Of a DNA stretch of 64,000 nucleotides, positions 1 to 12,960 are shown piece by piece. The stretch lies in the NCBI GenBank assembly GCA_015499995.1, contig JADNRV010000090.1:161357-225356 (forward strand), written 5' to 3'. Positions within the stretch are counted from its first letter, which is position 1. Each line of letters starts with the position of its first letter. Under the pieces are notes generated by a model, which was given only the letters and a program-made list of their open reading frames with translations, made no database searches and was not told the origin of the DNA. Both the position numbers and the translations under genes were made by a program. The DNA is from Flammula alnicola. Taxonomy: Eukaryota > Basidiomycota > Agaricomycetes > Agaricales > Strophariaceae.

Positions 1-1642
1 GACGAAGATGACCTGCACAATAAGATCCTTCAACGCATGCTAGCGTCCAATTTCTCCGAGAACGGGTAAGCCCAATGTAGCCACTGACAATTGGCGAAAA
101 CGCGACTAATTTATATCGAATATTAGAGTGGATTTGTACGACGAATCCGTTAGAACATTGGCGGAAATATTCCCTGTCGAACATGATGGTACGAAAACAT
201 CGACTTTACCTGGAAAGCTCTCTGCTAACATCTTTCTCTTTGTTCCCGAAGGATGGCACTCGGTGACATGCTACAAGAATATCCTCCACCTGGTGACGCG
301 TGTAACAAACAGATTCTACGTCGGCGAGCCTTTGTGTGCGTATCCTGCAATCTCATGACAGCGCATTATCAGTACACTCAGTACATAACATCCAGGCCGG
401 GATCCGAAGTACATTTCACTCGTAATGGACTTCGTCCAGGGTGTACCAAAAGCCGGAATGCTGATCAACCTCTTCTCATACTTCCTCCGGCCGTATGTCT
501 TCAAGCAGTCCCTCCTTCAAGAGATGATGCCAATTGACCGGATGTTTTTCGAACAGATTCGTAGGCCCTTATATCTCTCCTCTCCCCCGCTACGAGCGCT
601 TGGCAACCGAAGTCATTGGAGACATATTGAGATACCGCATTTCTATGTTCGAGAAACACGGTAAAAATTGGGAGTTGAAACCGGTTAGTGTACATCTACT
701 TCCGCCAGCGGATATCTTCCAATGCCGAGCGCTGACTAGGATTGTACCCAGAGGGATATGATTACTTGGCTTCTCGAGGAAGCAGAACCATACCAACGCG
801 ACCCGACTCACATTGCCATGCGTCTTCTGCGCGTCAACTTCGCAGGTCTCATGTCAACCTCTTTCGTACGTTTTATCTCAAATCTATTCCTACTCCTATT
901 TACCCATCTAAAATTATCAAGTTCCTCCCGCAAGTCCTGTACAAACTCGCCGCATCGCCGGAGTACGTCGGACCTCTGCGCGAACAAATCGACTCCGTCG
1001 TCGACAAGTACGGATGGACAAAAGAAGGTATCAGCAAGATGTACAGGATTGACAGCTTCATCCGTGAGGTCTCGCGCTTGAAAGGCTTTAGTGCACGTCA
1101 GTAGCGCCATTCCCTGGTTCTGTGCTTAATTAATGACGCCAATCAACTCCAGTGGTCCTTCACCGTAAGGTCATGAACCCGGAAGGCTTTAAATTCCACG
1201 ACGGAATCACCATCCCGCAAGGAACTCACATCGCTGCTGCGTCCTGCGTCGTCAACGTGAATGAGGATACCTTCGAAAACTCCGATAGATTCGATGGGCT
1301 GCGCTTTGCTCGGTTGCAGGAGGAAGCCGACGACGTCAACATGAAGCACCAGCTCACCTCGCCTGCGATGAATAACCTCTTTTATGGCGTTGGGAAACAC
1401 GCTTGTCCTGGACGGTATGCTCTTCCGCCTTTGTCTGATTTAGCTTAGAGGTGGCAAGATTGTTGATTCAGTGGATACGTAGATTCCTCATGACGTTTAT
1501 CATCAAGATACAGGTTGCGCTCATCCTACACAACTACGATATCAAGGTGAAGGACGATGTACTCCCCAAGGACCGCTGGCTGGGTGCCATCTGCATGCCC
1601 GATATGAATGCCGAGTTGTTGTACAGGAAACGGCATATTTAG
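1..1642 (+). CDS. Cytochrome P450 monooxygenase, 5' end cut by window edge
   Basis: Haem-thiolate monooxygenase, presumably membrane-bound in the ER. Nine exons splice in one frame: <1-65, 127-188, 252-335, 396-492, 557-683, 752-865, 922-1096, 1153-1414 and 1483-1642. The N-terminal membrane anchor and the start lie left of the window. Visible landmarks are the TNRFYVGEPLCRDPKYI block (exons 3-4), the I-helix region LRVNFAGLMSTS, a K-helix region around IDSFIREVSRLKG (E-x-x-R), and the haem loop GVGKHACPGR with its cysteine ligand, split by the last intron. This layout matches large fungal P450 families that attack terpenoids and hydrocarbons, but I cannot assign a CYP family by eye. It is convergent with the acyltransferase to its right, and its position in a run of terpenoid-type genes suggests it oxidises the same product. 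No break is seen in the visible part. Confidence 0.9.
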
Positions 1643-1924
1643 ACAACGAAATTAGTGGTACTATGGAGCGCGGCCTATTGTCAAGGTCATATGACTATTG
1701 AATACTGCGATTTTGAAGGCGGAAAGTATCACCAAAAAATATGACATCTGCCTTAAACTGGACCTTGACTGCGTGAAGACTATTGAGAGAGAAGTTCCTC
1801 CCGCGCCGACCTAGCGCTATATATGACTTGAAGCCCTGAGTGTTGAACCACATACATGTTACAGAGGATGATTTCGATTCTCTATTCAAGTGTCCACCAA
1901 GAAATGTACAAAGAAGGCATAATT

Positions 1925-3476
1925 CTAAGAATTGATACTGGCATCTTCAATGAGCTTAGCCACGCCTTGCTCCAAGCTCTTCATTCGCCTCGCGTTCAAC
2001 GCAACCTCGAGGATTGTACGCCCATCCTCACCCTCGCCGACGATTGTGATAACATTCGCCATCAGAACTGGTATGTTGATCATCACCTTGCTCGCCCGAC
2101 AAACAGTGCGCCCCCCTCCCACACCCGTCCAGTCAAATTTAGTGACATTTTCCGTAGACATGTCGGAAATGGTCATTATCTCGTCTGCATTTATGCGATC
2201 CATGGGAAACATCATCTTGAACGACCTCGAAGGTTTGGCGGATTCTTGAAGATGTTGATAGCTAAACATGCTGCGTGCGAGCGAAACTTCGGATTTGGCG
2301 TTCGCAATCCATGATGCTAATACGTAGGTTGGAAGGATTTTGAGCTCGGAGACGGTAACAATAGGATACTGGCGTGGTGTGAAACAGTTATGGATATAGT
2401 TCTTAGTTTGGATATCAGGGGATATACGGGAATAATCCATGTTACACAGATTTGTCCGAGTGGTGACATTCGTTTCGTCAGCATAGACTGTCTATTAGAA
2501 GGAAATTAATTAGTGCAAGACGATATATTTTAAAATGAATGCAACCTTGTATATCCAAGCTGTTAGGACGTCAGTAGTTGACAGATGGTCTTTTCCGCCT
2601 CCTTCGCGAGACGCAGCATTATTTGCGTCGTCGACAAGCTTTTCAATCGCATTCTGAGGCAGAAGCATGATACGGCGATCGGCCTTGTGCCAAACCCACT
2701 GCCATATCTGCCAGACTAAAAAGGTGACGAGGGCCCACAAACCCTGAATAGAGACTGTCGGATATTCAGAGGGATTAGGAAGTTCGAGTGTTGTTCTTCC
2801 CCCCGTCATATCACTTTGCAAGCGATCCAGGAATACTTGAAGTTCGTTTTCGTTCTCCCCAACATGAAGCGGTGGAGGAACGTCCCATTTTTGGCCGAGC
2901 ATCTCCGCCTCTACAGCTTGCAGTACCACCCCGAAACCTGGCCCGTCTACGAGGAGGTGCGGAATAACCAATCCAATGCAGGTGTATTCTTGGCCAGGTC
3001 GTTTGAAATATGTGAGATGCCATTGCATCAGAGGTAGGTTACGGGCCATCCAGTGACTGGCCACGAGCGGGACATTTGACCGCATGAACAACGACAAAGG
3101 AAGTACCTCCGACTGGGTGGGTACCGGTAACTTGACGTAGTCCGTAATGGGGGATCCAGATACAGTAGAAGTGAGGGTGAAGGGCTTATAGTCTTTGGGC
3201 AGTTGACCAAGGGGAATTTTGACTCTGTAATGCGATTTCTTACCAAAGGTATGTCAGAACATGAAGTAACGAAATATAGCAGTTTCTTACATCCGTTTGT
3301 TCAATCCTACCTGCGAGCAAGGGCCACTTAACCATTACTCGACGTAATTTGGAATCTATCTCGTCGACATCCACTTGCCCCTCAACAATCCATCCGACGA
3401 AGATCGAGGCAGTCGCGGCCAAGCCATCGAAAAGCGTTAAGGGATAGTAGGCGAAATTTCCGCTCAAACCCGTCAT
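1925..3476 (-). CDS. BAHD-like acyltransferase 1 (transferase family PF02458-type)
   Basis: Acyl-CoA-dependent O-acyltransferase-like protein. Exons 3476-3291, 3238-2546 and 2491-1925 give about 481 aa. The start is the ATG giving MTGLSGNFAYYPLTLFDG. The catalytic H-x-x-x-D is present as HLLVDG in exon 2. Near the C-terminus the family's DFGWG-like structural motif is replaced by FDWTGVGGGRT, which the paralogue 3.8-5.4 kb also has. A conserved KWPLLAGR segment follows the N-terminal block. Both introns are about 53 bp and sit at the same places as in the neighbouring copy, so the two arose by tandem duplication. A TATATATA tract lies about 80 bp upstream of the start. The acceptor and acyl donor are unknown; the context suggests esterification of a hydroxylated terpenoid. 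Confidence 0.87.
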
Positions 3477-3803
3477 GTCAAGGGAAGTCGAAATGTATGA
3501 ACGCGATCAGGAGTATCGAGGTCGCACTCATTCGAATAGAGGTTGCAGCTCTTCGATATATATACAATTGTTACATGTGGCGCTAAAACGATTCGATAAG
3601 CCCACTTTCCGAGATATTCCTGCGAAATTCATGGACATCGTGCCATCAAGACGATGCTTCGACTGTAGAAGAAAAACCGGGTACTTTCGCTTCAACTACG
3701 TCCGTTCCGCAACTTCCGCTGTAAGAACACAATTTTGTCCTTAATCAATATGGTAATTGTCGTTTTACATTCCCCATCTACGACATAATCGACTCAAGAT
3801 CTT
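3477..3803. other. Intergenic, between the tandem acyltransferases
   Basis: This holds the promoter side of acyltransferase 1, including the TA tract, and the 3' flank of acyltransferase 2. I see no coding signal. Confidence 0.6.
3556..3564 (-). promoter_or_regulatory. Candidate TATA box of acyltransferase 1
   Basis: An alternating TA tract lies 80-88 bp upstream of the ATG at 3476. It is placed as expected for a TATA element in a fungal promoter of this size. No other promoter evidence was used. Confidence 0.35.
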
Positions 3804-5367
3804 TTAGTTGTTCGAAGTACACACTGTCGACTCATCAGCTGCCTTGATCAGTTTGGCGACTCCCTCTTCTAGACTTCGCATGCGCCTCCTGTTCAATACG
3901 ACGTCTAGTACCGTACTCCCATCGTCTAACCGTCCAGCGATAGTCACAATATTCGAAATCAGAATAGGAGATTCGCTGAGAATCGTCTTGTAGCGGCATA
4001 TCGTCCTGCCACCGCCCACACCGCTCCAATCAATGTCCACAATACGTGCAATGGACATATTGGACATGGACATGCTCTCGTCTGCGCTAGGGTCATATGG
4101 TAGGACAGCTCTGAAGTTGAAAAAGCCGCTAGAGGGCTTGACAGAGTCCTGGAGTAGCGTGTAGACTTGAATGGCGTGACCGAGTGACAAAGCGGATCGG
4201 ACGCTCGCAAGTTTGTAGGCTAGCGAATGAACTGGTGTTGCTTTCAGCTCTGCGACGGTGAGGATCGGATACGGGATGGGAATAAAGCAATTGTGGGCGT
4301 ATTGCTTGAGGGCGACATCGGAAAACACGCGAAGGGAGGCCATGTTGGAGAGATGCACGCGAAGGGTAGGGTATTCTTCTTCACTGAAATAGACGGTCTA
4401 TACGAGTTCTGTTATTAGTCGCAATGAACCTGAGAATGCGAAGAGCTGATGTTACCTTGTACAACCAGGCAGTCAAGACATCTCCAGTTGACAGCCGAAC
4501 ATCCTTCTTCCCCTCCCGAACCATTGCCTCTCTCGCATCACGAACGAGTTTCTCGTATGCCTTTGCAGGTACGAGGATAAGACGACTACGGGCCTTGTGC
4601 CAGAGTTGCTGCCATAAATGCCAGGCCATGAACGTGATTATGAACCACAAGCCTACAACCGATGCTGCTCGGTAGTTAGCAGGTAGTTTCTTGACATTTT
4701 CTTGCATCCGATCGAGGAAACTTTGCATCTGATTCTCGTTGCGGCCAGCGTGAAGGGTCGGTGGGATAGCCCAAGGTCGGCCGAGCGTCTCTGCTTCAAG
4801 TGCATGGACAACGGCTGCAATTCCCATTCCGTCGAAGAGCCCGTGAGGAAAGGTCACCCCGATGCATGTGTATTCACAACCACGCTGTTTGAAATAGGTG
4901 AGGTGCCAATAAGTTAGAGGCAATTGTTTAGAAACCCAGGCACCTGGTGCTCTAGGTGCTGTGGAATGCATGAAGAGCGAGCTCGGAAGAACGTCTGATA
5001 CAGTGGGGAGAGGCAGTTGAACGAATTTGTCGATCGGAACATCCGAAACTCTCGATGTAAGGACAAATGGCGAGTATCCGGCGGGGAATGGGACCAAACC
5101 AAGCGGAACTTTGATTTGAAACAGTAATTTCTTTTCGCAAGTGTAAGTATGACGGATGTTACAGATGGGAAAACCTTGACATACGTCGGTTGACTCGAGC
5201 CTTCCTGCAAGCATCGGCCATTTCATTGTAAGGCGATGCAGAGCTGCTTCAATTTTTGTTAGGTCGAGCAAACCCTCCACGAACCATCCCGTTACAACGC
5301 CAGCATCCTTAAACATGCCATCAAAGAGAGTGAGAGGATAGTAGGCATATTCTTTCTCGGTTTTCAT
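3804..5367 (-). CDS. BAHD-like acyltransferase 2, tandem paralogue
   Basis: Second acyl-CoA-dependent transferase-like gene. Exons 5367-5185, 5130-4456 and 4397-3804 give about 483 aa. I chose the ATG giving MKTEKEYAYYPLTLFDG; the in-frame codon further upstream is only TTG. The catalytic H-x-x-x-D is HGLFDG, followed by MGIAAVVHALEAETLG. The C-terminal motif is IDWSGVGGGRTICRY. Intron positions match acyltransferase 1 exactly (after ...ES/QTD and after TAW-YK), and the proteins align end to end, but they are well diverged, so the duplication is not recent. The pair lies between a P450 and a squalene epoxidase, consistent with decorating one product at two positions or with two acyl donors; that is inference. 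Confidence 0.88.
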
Positions 5368-6369
5368 GTCGGAATGCAATGAAATGCAAGAGCGAGGTCG
5401 AGGATTGATTTACTTTAAGGATGAAGCCAAAGAATTCGGCGAGAAACGAGAAAACTTTGCGCGTCGGCCCAACAAAAACCTAACCGGACAAAAAGCAGGC
5501 CCGAATACGAATCCATATTCACGTTGGAAGAGTATTGGCCATGCAGCGATGCGGGCATAGAATTCCATATCAATCATGATGACTTCGGAGCCTTAGTTTC
5601 AGAACTGCAACCGAGGATGCAACCCCAGATTCTGGACGTTCGATTGGTTGATTCGCCATTCGCATCCGCCTTCTGGGTGAACGTACGTTCTACGAGAAAG
5701 GATGTACTCACCCCTAGGATGGAACAAAGAATGCGCCCTCAACGCGCTTCATTGGCTGGATAAGCCGTCGGATAATAACGGCGAGAATTTCGTCTCGAAC
5801 CCCACGCCGCCATCTCCTGCAGCTCAAACTCCGAGATAGATGCCACCGAACAAGTACACGTGGAAAATGAAGTCGTCTCGTAGCTCATAGGATTCCCATG
5901 GCCAGATAGAGTTAGTCCACTGGAATCGCGGTTATTGTTATAGGAGGGTAGAAAGGGTTGAGAGAAAACCAGAAGGCGAGAGAAAGTCCTCAAACTCAAG
6001 GAAAACAAATACAAGAAAAATAAACATTGTTATTTGTTGAGGTGCTTACCAATTAGAGCCAAATATTGGACCTTGGAGGTCCAGCAAGCAACCATCAAAG
6101 GTCCATAAGTATTAAGTAATTGTGGACCCCGTTAGGTGCGACTCGATCCAAGTTCAACGAAACAAGGGAACTGAAAACAAAATGCAACTCTCCATTGACA
6201 GTCATACAAAAAATACATATTTACAATTTTTGAACAACTGAAGTAAGTCTAGTTAGACTCTCGACCGTCCACATAGACGTCCGTCTATTGAAGATGCTGT
6301 ATCTAAATCTATATAAGTACTGTACAGGGCAAGAAAAGCGATAGGAATAATCAATTTAACAAGGCGGTA
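5368..6369. other. Intergenic, 1 kb
   Basis: Upstream region of acyltransferase 2 and 3' flank of the squalene epoxidase gene. Only short unsupported reading frames are present, and I recognise no motif. Confidence 0.5.
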
Positions 6370-8083
6370 CTAAAAGGACTCAGAGGGAGCCCACCACCTT
6401 ATCTCGCTCCACAGAACGGGGAGGAAGACCCCACATGCTCCGCAGAACTGTTCAAACGAACAAATCAGTCGTTCATCTGCCTTTTTCATGGAAATCGTCA
6501 ACTTACCATACGGATACCCTTCAGCGTGAGAGCAGGATACTCTGCAGGAGACGGTGCTTGATAGGTAAGCGTCCCGACATCTCCGCTGTGCCTCGACTGC
6601 GTGGCTCTTGGGTGGGTGAATATCACCCAGATGGCGTAGAATATGACCGCAAAGAAGTGGCTAGCCAATAACAGTGGTGAGGGAGATAATCTAAGCAAGC
6701 GTATTTGTAAGTTATACATAGAAATATCGCTGGAAAAAGTGCGTACCCCGAGAGCAAAGATACAGGGTCGTCGATACACTTCCCGCCTCGTTGAAAATAC
6801 TTGAAGCAGCCTTTACGAAGGGCCCTATAATCGTCGTCTACACCTTTAAATAAGCAAAAAAAAAACTGTGACCGAAAAACAAATCAACCCACCATCTTTT
6901 TCAAAGAGACCATAGAGAGTCCCGCTTAGGATGTTGATGGTAGACGACAAGGGCTTACGACCCCAATGCCAGTCGCGCAGGGCGTATTGAATCTCCTCCC
7001 AATCGTCCAAATTCTGAATGGAAGCAAAGACAGCTCGGAGATAGACAACGTCGTTGAGGGCGACCGTCATTCCACCACCCGTGAGAGGATGGCGCATGTT
7101 CCAAGAATCTCCCAGCAGGATAACGCCCTTTTTGGACAAAGAGCTGCCCTGTTGAACGGAAGGCAAGAACGAGTTGGGCATGCGCCTGATTCGACCCTGA
7201 GAAAAAGCGGCTCTGACAGCGTCATGAATCGAAGCAGGAAGTTGAGGGAGGATGTTTGTCAAGATATGAGTCTGTGCGGATTTCGTCAACAGCGGGAAAA
7301 ACAAATATTGAAACAACCCACTCTCAAATCAGCTGGAAGCGGGTGCTGGATGTCGATGAGCATACGAGTATCGTGCTCCGAGATTTGGTAGAGTAGAACA
7401 GGACCATGCCCTTGGGGAAGAATAACTGTTCCGTGCCCAGCTACTGGAAGGACGGCGTCCGTTAAAACTGTGCCAACAAAGTAACTCTTGGTGGTCGCCT
7501 TGCAAGCCGCCTTGCCCATAACGATATTGCGAAAGTTCGAGAAGCAGCCATCTGCGACGATGACCAGGTCACCATAAACACCAAAGCTCTGCTCAGTTAC
7601 CGTGTCACAATCCACAGGTGATTCGACAGGTTTGGTTTTTGAGGTGGCTCGAACGCCAATCACTTGGTTCGTGTGCGGACACTCGATAAGGTCGGCGGCT
7701 GTGGCTTCGATCGCGTCGATGTTGGCGTTCTCCAAGGCAATGCGACGGAGCCCCATAACAAAACGACCATGGTGAAAGCTGCGACCCTCCTTTCCTTTTG
7801 GGTAAGGAATTTGGACAGTGTCGCCCCCTTCGACGAGCAAGTATCCGGACACGGTAATGGCATCAATACCCTCGATGCTGGGTGTCATGTTGAGGGTTTT
7901 GAGAGCTTCGACTCCGCCGGGTTGGAGGAGCTCGCCGACGATTCTATCCGGCTCTGAGAAGGAGCGCTCTATCAAAGCAATCTGGAGGAGCTTTGGTCGA
8001 GGAAGAGTTGCAAGGGCATGCGCGAGAGCAGACCCTGCCACTCCCGCTCCAACGATGATAATGTCGTAGTGAGACCTGTGCAT
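6370..8083 (-). CDS. ERG1: Squalene epoxidase (squalene monooxygenase)
   Basis: FAD-dependent enzyme of the ER membrane that converts squalene to 2,3-oxidosqualene, the entry to sterols and triterpenoids. Five exons splice cleanly: 8083-7322, 7271-6893, 6843-6747, 6690-6507 and 6447-6370, giving about 499 aa. The N-terminal dinucleotide fold DIIIVGAGVAGSALAHALA is followed by ELLQPGGVEAL and VADGCFSNFR. Exon 2 has the flavin-binding GDSWNMRHPLTGGGMT signature. FKYFQRGGKCIDDPVSLLSG comes next, then a hydrophobic C-terminal anchor region ending WWAPSESF. No catalytic motif is missing. It could be the housekeeping ergosterol enzyme or a cluster-dedicated copy. Its place between acyltransferases and P450s favours a role in the local pathway, but genome copy number would decide this. 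It is divergent from the P450 to its right. Confidence 0.95.
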
Positions 8084-9564
8084 TGGCGATAGATGGGATG
8101 GTACGGACTCAATCCTGACTTCACAAACCAGTCTGCTCGCTATCTTGCGAGTTATAAGTGAATGGAGAACCTAAATTGGGGAGGGCCAATGCTAGTATGC
8201 GAGGACAAAGTCGGAGAATGCACAACAACGATACGGTGCACTTTTTCTTGCGCGAAATCATGCTGCATCTCGATATCGATGTGTATTGGTCTATCAAAGA
8301 AGATATCGTTGTGGTGACGAAATTTGGGATCAAAATTATAGGTAACTTACTTGAAGTTGTAAATTGTAGATCGGTCTTCGGGAATGGTCGGACAAGCGCA
8401 CCGTAAACGAGGACGTAAGAATGACCTCTATTGAAATTCTTTGCTGATTTAATCAGTAATTTGTAGCAACATCGGTGCCATGATGGCGATAGCGCCCGAA
8501 AGCCCGCCACCGATAATTGAGCAGATGCATATAGTATCGGCTTATGGCAATGGGTTGGCTGAAGGAATCGGGAAAACGAGGAACTTCGAGCACGGATTCT
8601 AAACAGAAGCGATATTCGGTAGCGTCCGCGTTAGAGAACTTTTTGTCGGGTGGCGCGCATTGCGATTGTAGATTCGCACAGAAGTGCAGCAAGCAATCGA
8701 TGCCACGGAAGCGAAATCCGTCGTTTCACAAGGCGAAAAGTTTGTGGATCAACTAGCGAAGTTTAAACTGCAAGCAAACTGCGAGTTGTACATTCTGAAG
8801 CATAGTTGACACAGCGAGGCAGGTTTTCCGACGACCAGAGCTGTCAAACGAGGACTGAATCGCGAGTTTGTTTGTCCATTTTAGCACCACTGAGTGAGCA
8901 CTACTAATACTATTTGTTTTTGTTGTACAAAACCTTCAGGATTTGTCAGACAATACTCAGTAAGTAGGCGCGAAACAAATTTTATCACAAATTGAAATTC
9001 TACCTCAACGGTACACTGGTATCAATTGAGAGTGCTGAAGCTCGGTTATAACTAAAAGGTTATCGTGAATGGGAGTATTGTTCCCATTTTACTACACGAA
9101 GTTTGCAAGGCACCGTATTTCAATCCCCGATCCTTTGAATTTCACCAGCGATACACTTGTCGATACATTTTCGCTCGCTTCGGCAATGACTCTGTCCATG
9201 AACTGATGGACCCTTTTGGAAGCAATGGGTTATCTTCTCGAGCGTCCGCCATCGTCAGAATAAAGAGGATCGGATATTTTGAGTACTATTATCCATCACT
9301 GTACGGCGGCGTTATGCTGGTGGTCCGAACAACGTCAGAGCGGCAACGGTGTAGCAGCGATAACAGCACTTCTCAACTGAGTACTTCTCAACTCAACCGG
9401 TTGAAGGGGACGACCGAACAACCCTTCTTTTACCTGATCAAAAAGCTGTTCCTTGATCGATTCCAAGCAGGCTTTATTCTCCGACCGCGTTTTCACTTCA
9501 GCATGGACAAGGTAGTTCATAGACACCCTTGGACTCCCTGTCAATAACTGAACTTTTCCTCTAG
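8084..9564. other. Intergenic between divergent squalene epoxidase and P450
   Basis: A 1.5 kb shared upstream region. A plus-strand open frame at 9065-9547 (160 codons from TTG/ATG-type starts) has no recognisable domain and no intron logic linking it to the P450, so I do not call it a gene. A TTATAA about 70 bp upstream of the squalene epoxidase start could be its TATA element. Confidence 0.4.
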
Positions 9565-12000
9565 ATGCCCTTCATTTTGAGCACTGTTTTCGACCTCAAC
9601 GTCGCTCTCTTTGGGGTGTGCTCTGCCGTCTTGTATCTCGTCATTCGTAGATGGTTCAAATTCCGTCCACTCTCCAATATCCAGGGACCTCTTTCTCCAT
9701 CTTTTGTGTTTGGTGCGCCTCACGAACTCTATATCTCACGTCCGCCCACTGATTGTTTTTACAGGTCACCTCATTGACTTACAGCACCAGGAAGATGCTG
9801 GAGAACTAGAACACAAATGGGTCAGTCAATATGGCGAGGCCTGCAAGATTGCTGGATCATTCGGGGTTCTGTTTCCTTTCCATTCTTCGATGGCTCGTTG
9901 AGTACTGACCATGACGCAGCAAGATACGCTTATGTTGGCCGACCCAAAGGCGCTGCACCACATCGTTCAAGCGTCTGGTTACCGCTATCCCAAAACGCCG
10001 GATACAAACCAAGCCATCCGACTCATGATGGGCCGAGGGATATTCTGGGCTGTTGGTAAGTTCATATTTTCCTTTTCCCGGCTTCTTCTGATGTACATAT
10101 TCGTGTTTTTTCAGGGGATGACCACAAGCGCCACAAGAAAGTCATGAATCCCGCCTTTGACATCAGCCGTTTACGCTCTTTTTTGCCACTTTTCCAAAGA
10201 TCTGCAGGAATGGTAAATTTAAAAAAAAAACTTCAATCAATTCGACAAATACTAACACCCCAGTGAAGCTCGCAGAAAAATGGAAAGCAGAAATCAAGCT
10301 CAACGGCCATATGATCGACGTTACTACCTGGATTTCTCGTCTCATGCTCGACAATATTGGAGAAGGTGATTTCGTTTCATTGGCTTCAAGAAGGCCATGG
10401 TTTTTTATTTCCCAACAGCTGCATTCGAACATCAATTTAACGCGGTTGATGGCGGGGGAGTCGGAGAGCTCTCGGATGCGTTCACCAATCTCTTGTGAGC
10501 GCTTATCTATTTTTACATATTGCCACCTTTCTCATTATCCTCACATTCAGTGCGGATTCTCTGCTCTTCCCGGACAAAGGAACAGTACTTTTTACCTCTC
10601 TGTGGAGATTCATACCGCCCGATATCCTACGTTACGTTGAATATCTTCCAGCACGTCAAGTCCGTCGCTTCCGCAGGTTTTTGAAAGTGTCCAAGCAGGC
10701 CGCAAGAAATGTAATAAGCAACCGTGCATCCAGTATCAGCTGTGACGACGAGAACAAAGATATCCTGAGCATCCTTGGTGGGTAAAGTCACTTTTTATTC
10801 TCTGCCATGCTCTGACGCGAACACAGTACGATCAAACTCCTCTGTTGACGCTAAGAAGAGGCTCGATGAAGATGAATTACTGTCACAAATGGCGTAAGTG
10901 TTTATTTCCTGTTTTATATGAGAAGGAGGGTTAATGTTCAACATGACAATCGCAGAACTATCATGTTAGCGGGCCACGACTCCACCGCCATGTCGCTTAG
11001 TTGGCTTCTATACGACCTTTCTCTCAATCCCGAGGACCAGAAACGCGTCCGAGAGGAAATCGTCAGCGTCAAATCCCAGAGCGACACACCAGACTGCTTA
11101 GGTATAGTTGACTTTGAAGCAATGACCTACACCAACGCCGTGATAAGGGTAAGTTCATCGAAAATTTCCTTACGAATTGGCTAATAGTACTTCGATGACG
11201 AATTCCACAGGAAACCCTTCGTTTGCATCCTATCGCGTTTATGCTTCCTCGGATGGCCGCTGAAGATGACGTGATACCACTCGCCACCCCGATTACCACG
11301 AAGACAGGAGAAAGGCTTTCAGAGATACCAATCAAGAAAGGCCAGAGCATCTACATGGCCATTTATACTTACAATCGGTTCGCTTTCTTTCTCCCATCAT
11401 TCCCAGACAATGAGCTTACACTATGCTCTGGCGATTCAGACTCAAGGGCGTGTGGGGAGAAGACGCCGACAAATGGAATCCTGGACGGTTCCTCGGGAAT
11501 ACGAAGGAGAAAGAGTACACCATGGGCATGTTTGCTAACTTGTAAGTGGGCACGTTTCGGTTATGCTTTCCAAAGTCTAATACTCTATGCCACAGATTGA
11601 CATTCTGTATGTTCGCCTTATCACTCTTCGGATTAACTCACTAAACGCCATATGTACAGCGGGCGGTGTGCGTGGTTGCTTAGGGTGAGTGTCCGTCCGA
11701 TCGTGAGAAAACCTGCCAGAGCTGACGTTTTATTACATTCATAGGTGGCGTTTTGCGTAAGTCTCCCTCCATCCAAGAAAGAGTAACCTTCCATTAAGCT
11801 CACTGCATTATAGTGTTCTCGAACTACAAGCTACCCTGGTCGGACTCATGGAACAATTCGAGTTCTCGCCGCCTCCCGGAATCGAAATTCAAGGCGCTCC
11901 TGCTGGGAGCATGATACCTGTCATTCGAGGACGGGCACGCGAAGGGACCCAGCTTCCTCTTTGCATCTCTGCGCTCGACAAAGGCGAACGTGATTTCTGA
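9565..12000 (+). CDS. Cytochrome P450 monooxygenase, complete, with micro-exons
   Basis: Complete haem-thiolate monooxygenase with an N-terminal membrane anchor (MPFILSTVFDLNVALFGVC onward). At least a dozen short exons splice in frame. Landmarks in order are KWVSQYGEACKIAGSFG, GDDHKRHKKVMNPAF (the C-helix region), the I-helix oxygen-binding motif MLAGHDSTAMSLSWLLYDL, the K-helix ETLRLHP (E-x-x-R), VWGEDADKWNPGRF, and the haem loop SGGVRGCLGWRFA with its cysteine. The haem loop is built from exons of 11 nt (11596-11606), 25 nt (11660-11684) and 12 nt (11745-11756) before the last exon at 11814. The GGVRxCxGWRFA form is typical of a large basidiomycete P450 group whose members include triterpenoid oxidases. 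One internal junction near 10210-10266 is less certain: an acceptor after GTGAAG keeps the frame. Confidence 0.92.
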
Positions 12001-12354
12001 TAGAATGATGTACACACGTAGATTGATCTAGCTTTACCTCTGAATATTATCGAGTTCGTAATTGGAATGAGCAGCTCAGTGAGGTAGACGTATGTGTATT
12101 TTTCTACTGCATTTATCTGGTACTTCTGTATTTAATTTAGATTCGATTATTGTTCTATCAATCCAAGGTCGTTTCTACATTCTGATCCATTCCATTGTTA
12201 TGTCTATAAGCGCCTATCGTGATCAGTTAGAATTTGATCCCATAAGCGCCGAAAAAAATGTGGCACGTGGGAATATCATGACTAACCAGGCCGCCGCCTT
12301 CCCTCACGCCCAAATCAAGGGGGTTCTGGAACCAGAATGCCGGACCGGGGGTCG

Positions 12355-12402
12355 GTTAGTTAGTCCGGCCGTAGGCCGCCCAAAAAAATTTTTGGACCCC
12401 TC
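12355..12402 (+). repeat. Direct repeat copy A (TTAGTTAGTCC...AAAAAAAT...GACCC)
   Basis: It starts TTAGTTAGTCC, continues with a GCCC then an A7T run, and ends in TGGACCCC. It resembles copy B 485 bp downstream in the same orientation. It could be the terminus of a small non-autonomous element. Confidence 0.45.
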
Positions 12403-12841
12403 TACAAGTGCCCTGAAATTTGGAATTTTGGGCGATGCAAAGGTGTTTTATTACCTCTCTACACTCATAATCTCTTTAATAGGCTGTTAGAGCATCTAGA
12501 ATGAGAATAGAATGAACAATCATTGGTTTGTAGCAGTTACTGGATGACTAAGCCGGTCTATCTGTGGCCTCACACTCGCGATTTCCGTAAACTGCAAATG
12601 TTCGGACCTTTTACAAAACATGATGGGTATATCTTTATTTCAAAGTCAAAAAATCGGATTTCATTGTAATATTTGTACTAATACATCTGTAATATCATCT
12701 AAAATGTATCAGCCTCGAGAAAATCTCTCAGAAATGGGTTTGCGAGACGTGCGAGGGATCTGGATTCTGGAGGGAGAGGTGGAAAGTGCACGTGCCGGTG
12801 ATGTCATATTACCATATCGGGACGTGTGCCTGATTACATAG

Positions 12842-12890
12842 TTAGTTAGTCCAGCAAAAGTGGGCGAAAAAAATAATTCGACCCTAGGTA
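12842..12890 (+). repeat. Direct repeat copy B
   Basis: It shares TTAGTTAGTCC, a GGGCG, an A7T run and TCGACCCTA with copy A in the same order and orientation. It lies just upstream of the BTB gene, so it may also touch that gene's promoter. Confidence 0.45.
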
Positions 12891-12960
12891 TTTTTTTTTG
12901 GTTCGCGAACCCCCTTGGCCCAAATCTTGCCAATGTTCTCAACTTTCCTCGACACTGGCT

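What the first reader, a model, noticed from the sequence alone, without database searches (positions are those of the whole stretch)
1..12000. Candidate acylated-triterpenoid biosynthesis locus around a squalene epoxidase
A squalene epoxidase sits between two BAHD-like acyltransferases and two P450s, all apparently intact where visible. Squalene epoxidase makes oxidosqualene. P450s and acyltransferases are typical tailoring steps for mushroom triterpenoids, some of which are known to carry acyl side chains on hydroxyls. No oxidosqualene cyclase is visible, so either it lies left of position 1 or the pathway borrows the sterol cyclase. Established knowledge covers the enzyme families; the pathway assignment is inference.
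Basis: partly seen in the sequence, partly recalled or inferred. Interest (0 to 1): 0.75.

Follow-up and report, generated by a model that had tools for sequence, protein, structure and literature searches.

The report
Mushroom gene cluster for acylated triterpenoids
A mushroom keeps a second, specialised copy of a sterol-pathway enzyme beside two oxidising and two acid-attaching enzymes, which looks like a small pathway for decorated triterpenoids and may hold the unidentified enzymes behind some known mushroom compounds.

Summary
The five genes are real and look intact, in Flammula alnicola. Order: P450A(+), ACT1(-), ACT2(-), SQE(-), P450B(+), from -487 to 12000. Four of the five models equal public proteins letter for letter. 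The assembly shows two squalene epoxidase loci. The window's copy is a distinct paralogue, 57% identical to the other, with an intact active site. The only oxidosqualene cyclase found lies on another contig, so the pathway must borrow it. Pfam misses ACT1 and ACT2, but ACT2 folds like a BAHD enzyme. Relatives of P450A, ACT1 and ACT2 share one Gymnopilus junonius contig. P450A's only other close relatives listed are in Hypholoma sublateritium, a clavaric acid producer, and G. dilepis. Reported chemistry of a related mushroom fits: lanostanes with 2-HMG and 3-acetyl esters, beside a bis-oxidised squalene. Most likely an acylated-lanostane cluster with its own epoxidase; the bolder reading is bis-epoxidation plus HMG attachment. 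Against it: no such epoxidase was listed for H. sublateritium or G. junonius. Nothing functional was tested.

The parts
1..1642 (+). P450A, cytochrome P450 of 503 aa; begins 487 bp left of the window (C852:160870). Exons in the window: 1-65 (continuing from the left), 127-188, 252-335, 396-492, 557-683, 752-865, 922-1096, 1153-1414, 1483-1642
   Evidence: the spliced model equals public P0153; first model with one intron (189-251) left in, corrected. PF00067 4e-26; close relatives in Hypholoma sublateritium, Gymnopilus junonius and G. dilepis.
1925..3476 (-). ACT1, BAHD-like acyltransferase of 481 aa (exons 3291-3476, 2546-3238, 1925-2491)
   Evidence: equals public P0012. HxxxD present. No Pfam match. 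Sister to G. junonius P0008 at 100/100 support.
3804..5367 (-). ACT2, BAHD-like acyltransferase of 483 aa (exons 5185-5367, 4456-5130, 3804-4397)
6370..8083 (-). SQE2, squalene epoxidase paralogue of 497 aa (exons 7322-8083, 6893-7271, 6747-6837, 6507-6690, 6370-6447)
   Evidence: equals public P0033. PF08491 8e-90; human squalene monooxygenase 9e-98; separate clade; pocket residues intact.
8084..9564 (.). Gap of 1.48 kb between the divergent starts of SQE2 and P450B; a possible shared promoter region (inference, not tested)
   Evidence: Coordinates.
9565..12000 (+). P450B, cytochrome P450 of 548 aa in 15 exons; CYP5150-like from recall, not tested
   Evidence: splice model without an in-frame stop. 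PF00067 7.4e-69. Not compared with a public protein.
3516..3517 (.). Site where the other haplotype contig (C320) carries an insertion of about 6.5 kb with a Plavaka transposase piece, 40 bp upstream of the ACT1 start codon
   Evidence: flanks align up to 3517 and again from 3516; PF18759 1.5e-23.

Best explanation
A small specialised-metabolism cluster for an acylated lanostane-type triterpenoid. SQE2, a duplicated and diverged squalene epoxidase with an intact active site, supplies epoxidised squalene for the pathway. The single, unlinked oxidosqualene cyclase cyclises it. P450A and P450B hydroxylate the skeleton. ACT1 and ACT2, two BAHD-like enzymes, esterify two hydroxyls. Shown here: gene content, reading frames, paralogy of the SQE, fold of ACT2 (predicted), absence of a linked cyclase, linkage of P450A, ACT1 and ACT2 relatives in a second genus. 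Inferred: that the five act in one pathway, that the substrate is a lanostane, and which acyl groups are used.
For: Five genes in 12.5 kb, bounded on the right by BTB-like, NADH-dehydrogenase and ion-channel genes and on the left by glycosidase- and GH3-like ORFs. A second SQE locus exists that groups with the species tree; SQE2 is 57% identical to it but 78% to a Gymnopilus dilepis SQE. Of 23 pocket positions (recalled from the human enzyme), 22 equal that other copy and one is V to L at human 197. ACT2 fold hits include a triterpenoid acetyltransferase, and the ACT alignment's best PDB sequence hits are BAHD enzymes (6.8e-5 and 0.0054). P0002, P0008 and P0155, relatives of ACT2, ACT1 and P450A, are on one 247,879-bp G. 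junonius contig. P450A has close relatives in only three other listed species; the next is 36%. Chemistry of relatives: Pholiota populnea makes lanostane diesters with HMG at C-2, acetate at C-3 and oxidised C-24/C-25, plus 2,3,22,23-tetrahydroxysqualene (PMC9040055, passages), and clavaric acid (PMC9862111, passages).
Against: No SQE2 relative was listed for G. junonius or H. sublateritium (best 120 of 4714 shown; H. sublateritium's sterol-type SQE is not among them either, so its absence is weak), nor an ACT for H. sublateritium (32 hits). SQE2-clade members of G. dilepis, Panaeolus papilionaceus and Coprinopsis cinerea sit on contigs whose lengths match no ACT hit. No cyclase, transporter or regulator was found within the five-gene island. 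In H. sublateritium one erg1 is reported to serve both sterols and clavaric acid (PMC12785832, passages), so a dedicated SQE is not required there. The one search for this species by name showed no triterpenoid report (listing of 12 papers; older names not searched).
Confidence: 0.58

Rival explanations
1. P450A, ACT1 and ACT2 form a conserved unit for some other acylated product (for example a polyisoprenepolyol or sesquiterpenoid ester), and SQE2 merely lies beside it in this species.
For: Only these three genes have linked relatives in G. junonius, and no SQE2 was listed there. G. junonius is reported to make gymnopilins and gymnoprenols, the latter polyisoprenepolyols (PMC11851804, passages). 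SQE2-clade genes in other species are on contigs without a listed ACT. ACT paralogues on C34, C39 and C656 lie near short-chain-dehydrogenase-like ORFs; no SQE was seen beside them (read by eye; SQE hits are elsewhere).
Against: SQE2 lies inside the island, between ACT2 and P450B. G. dilepis has both SQE2 and P450A, though on different contigs.
Confidence: 0.22
2. SQE2 is an extra sterol-pathway copy (dosage or fruiting-stage isoform) with no specialised role.
For: Active-site residues are nearly unchanged, so it should make ordinary oxidosqualene.
Against: It is 57% identical to the other copy, forms its own clade with members in other genera, and sits among tailoring genes.
Confidence: 0.13
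3. SQE2 is a self-resistance copy protecting the fungus from a squalene-epoxidase inhibitor made by the cluster.
For: Duplicated targets inside biosynthetic clusters are a known pattern (recalled); the cluster has no backbone enzyme.
Against: Pocket positions are unchanged except one conservative V to L (positions recalled), so no target-site change stands out.
Confidence: 0.07

Closest known systems
Clavaric acid pathway of Hypholoma sublateritium (erg1 squalene epoxidase, oxidosqualene clavarinone cyclase occ)
   Same: Squalene epoxidised to dioxidosqualene, cyclised, then esterified with HMG (PMC12785832, passages). P450A relative present in H. sublateritium. The Flammula cyclase lies between an actin-related and a condensin gene, the order given for the cyclase cluster of H. 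fasciculare (PMC8181146, passages); immediate adjacency not checked.
   Different: There one erg1 is reported to serve sterols and clavaric acid, and the HMG-attaching step is described as uncharacterised. Here a second SQE sits with two acyltransferases and two P450s. Only one cyclase locus was found in Flammula.
Fasciculols, fasciculic acids and pholiols (lanostanes and their esters from Hypholoma and Pholiota)
   Same: Extra hydroxylations and, in pholiols A-D, two acyl groups, HMG at C-2 and acetate at C-3 (PMC9040055, passages), matching two ACTs.
   Different: No gene cluster for them showed in the listings searched; no product of F. alnicola is known from these searches.
Siraitia grosvenorii SgSQE2 (dioxidosqualene for mogrosides)
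   Same: A squalene epoxidase isoform that makes dioxidosqualene, leading to a C24-OH triterpenoid (PMC12196517, passages).
   Different: A plant enzyme; SQE2 here has not been assayed.
Fungal onoceroid clusters (homo, fumi, alli of Aspergillus)
   Same: Fungal triterpenoid clusters with an FAD-dependent epoxidase, P450 in two of them and, in alli, an acetyltransferase (PMC11109268, passages).
   Different: They carry their own cyclases, and their epoxidase is described as homologous to those of meroterpenoid pathways, not as a second squalene epoxidase.

Membership tests
Squalene epoxidase (ERG1/SQLE) | SE domain PF08491 and whole-length similarity to a solved enzyme | tested here: met
   PF08491 8e-90; human squalene monooxygenase 9e-98 over 6-458.
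Squalene epoxidase (ERG1/SQLE) | FAD-binding GxGxxG, GD...NMRHPLTGGG motif and pocket residues | tested here: met
   Motifs seen in the alignment; 22 of 23 recalled pocket positions equal to the genome's other SQE.
Squalene epoxidase (ERG1/SQLE) | Epoxidation of squalene (once or twice) | not testable with these tools
   Needs enzyme assay.
BAHD acyltransferases (PF02458) | Match to the family model | tested here: not met
   ACT1 and ACT2: no hit at E<=5, not among the genome's PF02458 matches, none in NCBIfam. The G. junonius relative P0008 passes (27.3 bits against 22.7).
BAHD acyltransferases (PF02458) | Two-domain BAHD fold | tested here: met
BAHD acyltransferases (PF02458) | HxxxD catalytic motif | tested here: met
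   H157, D161 and G162 (ACT2 numbering) invariant in 25 of 25 aligned sequences, ACT1 and ACT2 included.
BAHD acyltransferases (PF02458) | DFGWG structural motif (recalled) | tested here: not met
   In its place most rows read D-W-[ST]-G or similar. So: works like a BAHD by fold and catalytic motif, not filed as a canonical member.
Cytochrome P450 (P450A, P450B) | PF00067, ExxR and heme-cysteine motif | tested here: met
   ExxR and GxxxCxG read in both models; the leading F of the heme motif (recalled) is Y in P450A.
Fungal triterpenoid biosynthetic cluster (helvolic-acid type, recalled) | Clustered oxidosqualene cyclase | tested here: not met
   The only cyclase matches in the genome are on C334; none seen by eye in the window or 30 kb left.
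Clavaric acid/fasciculol pathway | Cluster genes present in a known producer | tested here: inconclusive
   P450A relative in H. sublateritium, 81% over 474 aa; no SQE2 or ACT of that species listed, but the lists may lack its gene models.
Clavaric acid/fasciculol pathway | Production of HMG-lanostanes by F. alnicola | not tested
   No metabolite data seen (listing).

The most novel reading that the evidence does not exclude
SQE2 is a dedicated squalene bis-epoxidase making 2,3;22,23-dioxidosqualene, whose cyclisation gives the 24,25-oxygenated lanostane side chain. P450A and/or P450B add the C-2 (and C-12 or C-7/C-11) hydroxyls. ACT1 and ACT2 are the missing HMG-CoA:lanostane acyltransferase and its acetyl partner. 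The locus would then be the tailoring cluster for the fasciculic acid/pholiol/clavaric acid family, working through the single unlinked cyclase.
Probability: 0.24. Interest if true: 0.8.

Novelty: new variant of a known kind. Interest (0 to 1): 0.57.

Why it matters
HMG-esterified lanostanes are reported from Hypholoma and Pholiota, and a 2025 review says the HMG attachment in clavaric acid still needs to be characterised (PMC12785832, passages). This locus offers two concrete acyltransferase genes, a P450 whose close relatives were listed only in Hypholoma and Gymnopilus besides Flammula, and a second squalene epoxidase that could explain the bis-oxidised squalene seen in Pholiota. It is also a triterpenoid-type cluster without a cyclase and with acyltransferases invisible to Pfam, so mining that starts from cyclases could miss it (inference).

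Tried and rejected
A cyclase left of the window: ORF lists for 30 kb read by eye and Pfam on 15 chosen ORFs there gave none. Genome-wide, PF13243 and a cyclase exon gave only C334. PF13249 gave no match at all, not even at C334, so exon-by-exon searches of this genome are not fully sensitive and a second, diverged cyclase is not excluded.

Recent duplication versus old paralogue: the 119-row tree put six SQE2-clade rows apart from 113 others with SH-aLRT 100 (one of 120 proteins dropped by length), but P0035 and P0049 are long branches. A second tree with 56 of the 119 rows, those two among the rows left out, gave a 100/100 clade of four SQE2 rows, yet a test could not reject that SQE2 arose within the dark-spored agarics (p-AU 0.478). 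The date of the duplication is open.

Frame change in P450A near 560: explained by an intron (493-556). My first P450A model (524 aa, used) kept one 63-bp intron; corrected.

Self-resistance by target change: no pocket change beyond one V to L.

Papers: ten searches; their listings show no gene cluster for fasciculols, pholiols or gymnopilins and no HMG-lanostane acyltransferase. The library is open-access only, so this is weak. Passages of PMC7712035, PMC12345202 and PMC10816013 added nothing. I did not look up the original Godio papers on erg1 and occ; they are known here through the review.

NCBIfam gave only scores far below cut-off for SQE2 and P450A and nothing for the ACTs. GH3-like, glycosidase and UstYa ORFs to the left were not included: nothing ties them to the five genes.
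Full report
Source and setting. The window is the right end of contig C852 (161357-225356) of a 74.4-Mb, 861-contig assembly. Proteins from a contig of the same length are public as Flammula alnicola, a brown-spored agaric. Several loci occur on two contigs at 96-98% identity, so the assembly holds parts of two haplotypes.

The five genes. Splice models were made by hand-guided scripts and checked against public proteins. P450A (503 aa), ACT1 (481), ACT2 (483) and SQE2 (497) are identical to P0153, P0012, P0001 and P0033. P450B (548 aa, 15 exons) was modelled without an internal stop but not compared with a public protein. The order is P450A(+) ACT1(-) ACT2(-) SQE2(-) P450B(+); P450A begins 487 bp outside the window. 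To the right come a BTB-like ORF, an NADH-dehydrogenase subunit and an ion channel; to the left glycosidase-like and GH3-like ORFs. The island is about 12.5 kb.

The squalene epoxidase. PF08491 finds SQE exons on four contigs: C834 and C178, which are allelic (93.7-97.1% at the DNA level), and C852 and C320, the window's locus. The C834 copy (P0050) groups next to Pholiota conissans among the dark-spored agarics and is taken as the sterol enzyme (inference). The window's copy is 57% identical to it, 78% to one from Gymnopilus dilepis and 64% to one from Panaeolus papilionaceus. G. dilepis also has a second copy (P0082) that groups with the sterol type. In a tree of 119 of the 120 listed proteins, six rows (Flammula, G. 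dilepis, two unnamed, P. papilionaceus, Coprinopsis cinerea) stand apart from 113 with SH-aLRT 100, but the last two have long branches. Five alignment columns separate the four core members from at least 90% of the 113; four of the five are shared by all six. Of 23 pocket positions (recalled from the human enzyme), 22 equal the genome's other copy and one is V to L. The enzyme thus looks functional. When the duplication happened is open: an origin inside the dark-spored agarics is not rejected (p-AU 0.478, 56 rows).

The P450s. P450A's search gave 29 hits: its own record, H. sublateritium, G. junonius and G. dilepis as close relatives, then nothing above 36%. These four stand together at SH-aLRT 100 (21 rows). 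P450B was not searched outside.

Synteny. ACT1 and P0008 are sister at 100/100; ACT2 and P0002 lie in the same unresolved clade. That the contig is one and the same is inferred from length and species; distances are unknown. No SQE2 of G. junonius or H. sublateritium was listed (best 120 of 4714), and no ACT of H. sublateritium (32 hits). These absences count against a fixed five-gene unit, though missing gene models could explain them. G. dilepis has SQE2 and P450A on separate contigs.

The cyclase. PF13243 and a cyclase exon find only C334:704.8-706.1 kb; PF13249 finds nothing, not even that gene, so sensitivity is limited. Actin-related and condensin-2 genes lie on either side of it. In H. 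fasciculare the cluster annotated with an oxidosqualene clavarinone cyclase lists actin-related, cyclase and nuclear condensin in that order (PMC8181146, passages). By position, Flammula's only cyclase found is thus the counterpart of that gene; whether it makes lanosterol, clavarinone-type products or both cannot be told here.

Chemistry of relatives. Pholiota populnea yields lanostane diesters, pholiols A-D, with HMG at C-2, acetate at C-3 and oxygen at C-24 and C-25, together with 2,3,22,23-tetrahydroxysqualene (PMC9040055, passages); further HMG lanostanes and (+)-clavaric acid are reported (PMC9862111, passages). Hypholoma lateritium (recalled as the same species as H. sublateritium) yields a lanostane oxygenated at 2, 3, 12, 21, 24 and 25 and fasciculols with their depsipeptides (PMC6359218, passages). 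A review states that clavaric acid passes through 2,3,22,23-dioxidosqualene and that HMG attachment needs further study (PMC12785832, passages). In a plant, a squalene epoxidase isoform makes dioxidosqualene for 24-hydroxylated mogrosides (PMC12196517, passages). Two ACTs, two P450s and a spare SQE are roughly what such a diester would need beyond the sterol pathway. This is an argument from relatives: no metabolite report for F. alnicola was seen (listing).

Verdict. A genuine, partly conserved tailoring cluster with a distinct squalene epoxidase paralogue; most likely for acylated lanostanes (0.58). That SQE2 is a bis-epoxidase and one ACT an HMG transferase is the boldest reading left standing (0.24). 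Its main weakness is that SQE2 was not seen in the best-known producer, where one erg1 is reported to serve both branches.

Noticed in passing
window 3516-3517; L016:1-4225, L028, L039 (contig C320): The other haplotype contig carries an insertion of about 6.5 kb with a Plavaka transposase piece between ACT1 and ACT2, 40 bp upstream of the ACT1 start.
   Followed up: partly
window 2246-3517 and 3516-12316 against L028, L016, L017: The two haplotype contigs are 100% identical over these stretches (most of the cluster) but 97.8% from 12918 on, with an indel at 12317-12917, while the other SQE locus differs by 3-6%. Recombination, sweep or assembly sharing not told apart.
   Followed up: partly
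L012:1572-2279, 3800-4330, 5488-5973; L013:1-297: At least four UstYa-like (PF11807) ORFs about 20-30 kb left of the cluster, a possible separate specialised-metabolism group.
   Followed up: no
L014:2198-3100 (-): A GH3-like ORF (PF03321 1.7e-5) some 6-7 kb left of P450A; of interest because fasciculol depsipeptides exist and GH3 enzymes make amides (recalled), but nothing links it to the cluster.
   Followed up: no
L042:1584-2519, 4262-5615, 9192-10000: The only oxidosqualene cyclase found has actin-related and condensin-2 genes on either side, the order reported for the H. fasciculare clavarinone cyclase cluster.
   Followed up: partly
L043, L046, L047: Close copies of an ACT relative on C34, C39 and C656 (about 90-99% at the DNA level), beside short-chain-dehydrogenase-like ORFs (read by eye).
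   Followed up: partly
L013:5216-5830 (-): Ricin-B-type lectin domain ORF (PF14200, PF00652).
   Followed up: no
P0049 (Coprinopsis cinerea): A C. cinerea squalene epoxidase falls in the SQE2 clade rather than with the 113 others, on a long branch; it shares all five SQE2-core columns with the four core members.
   Followed up: partly
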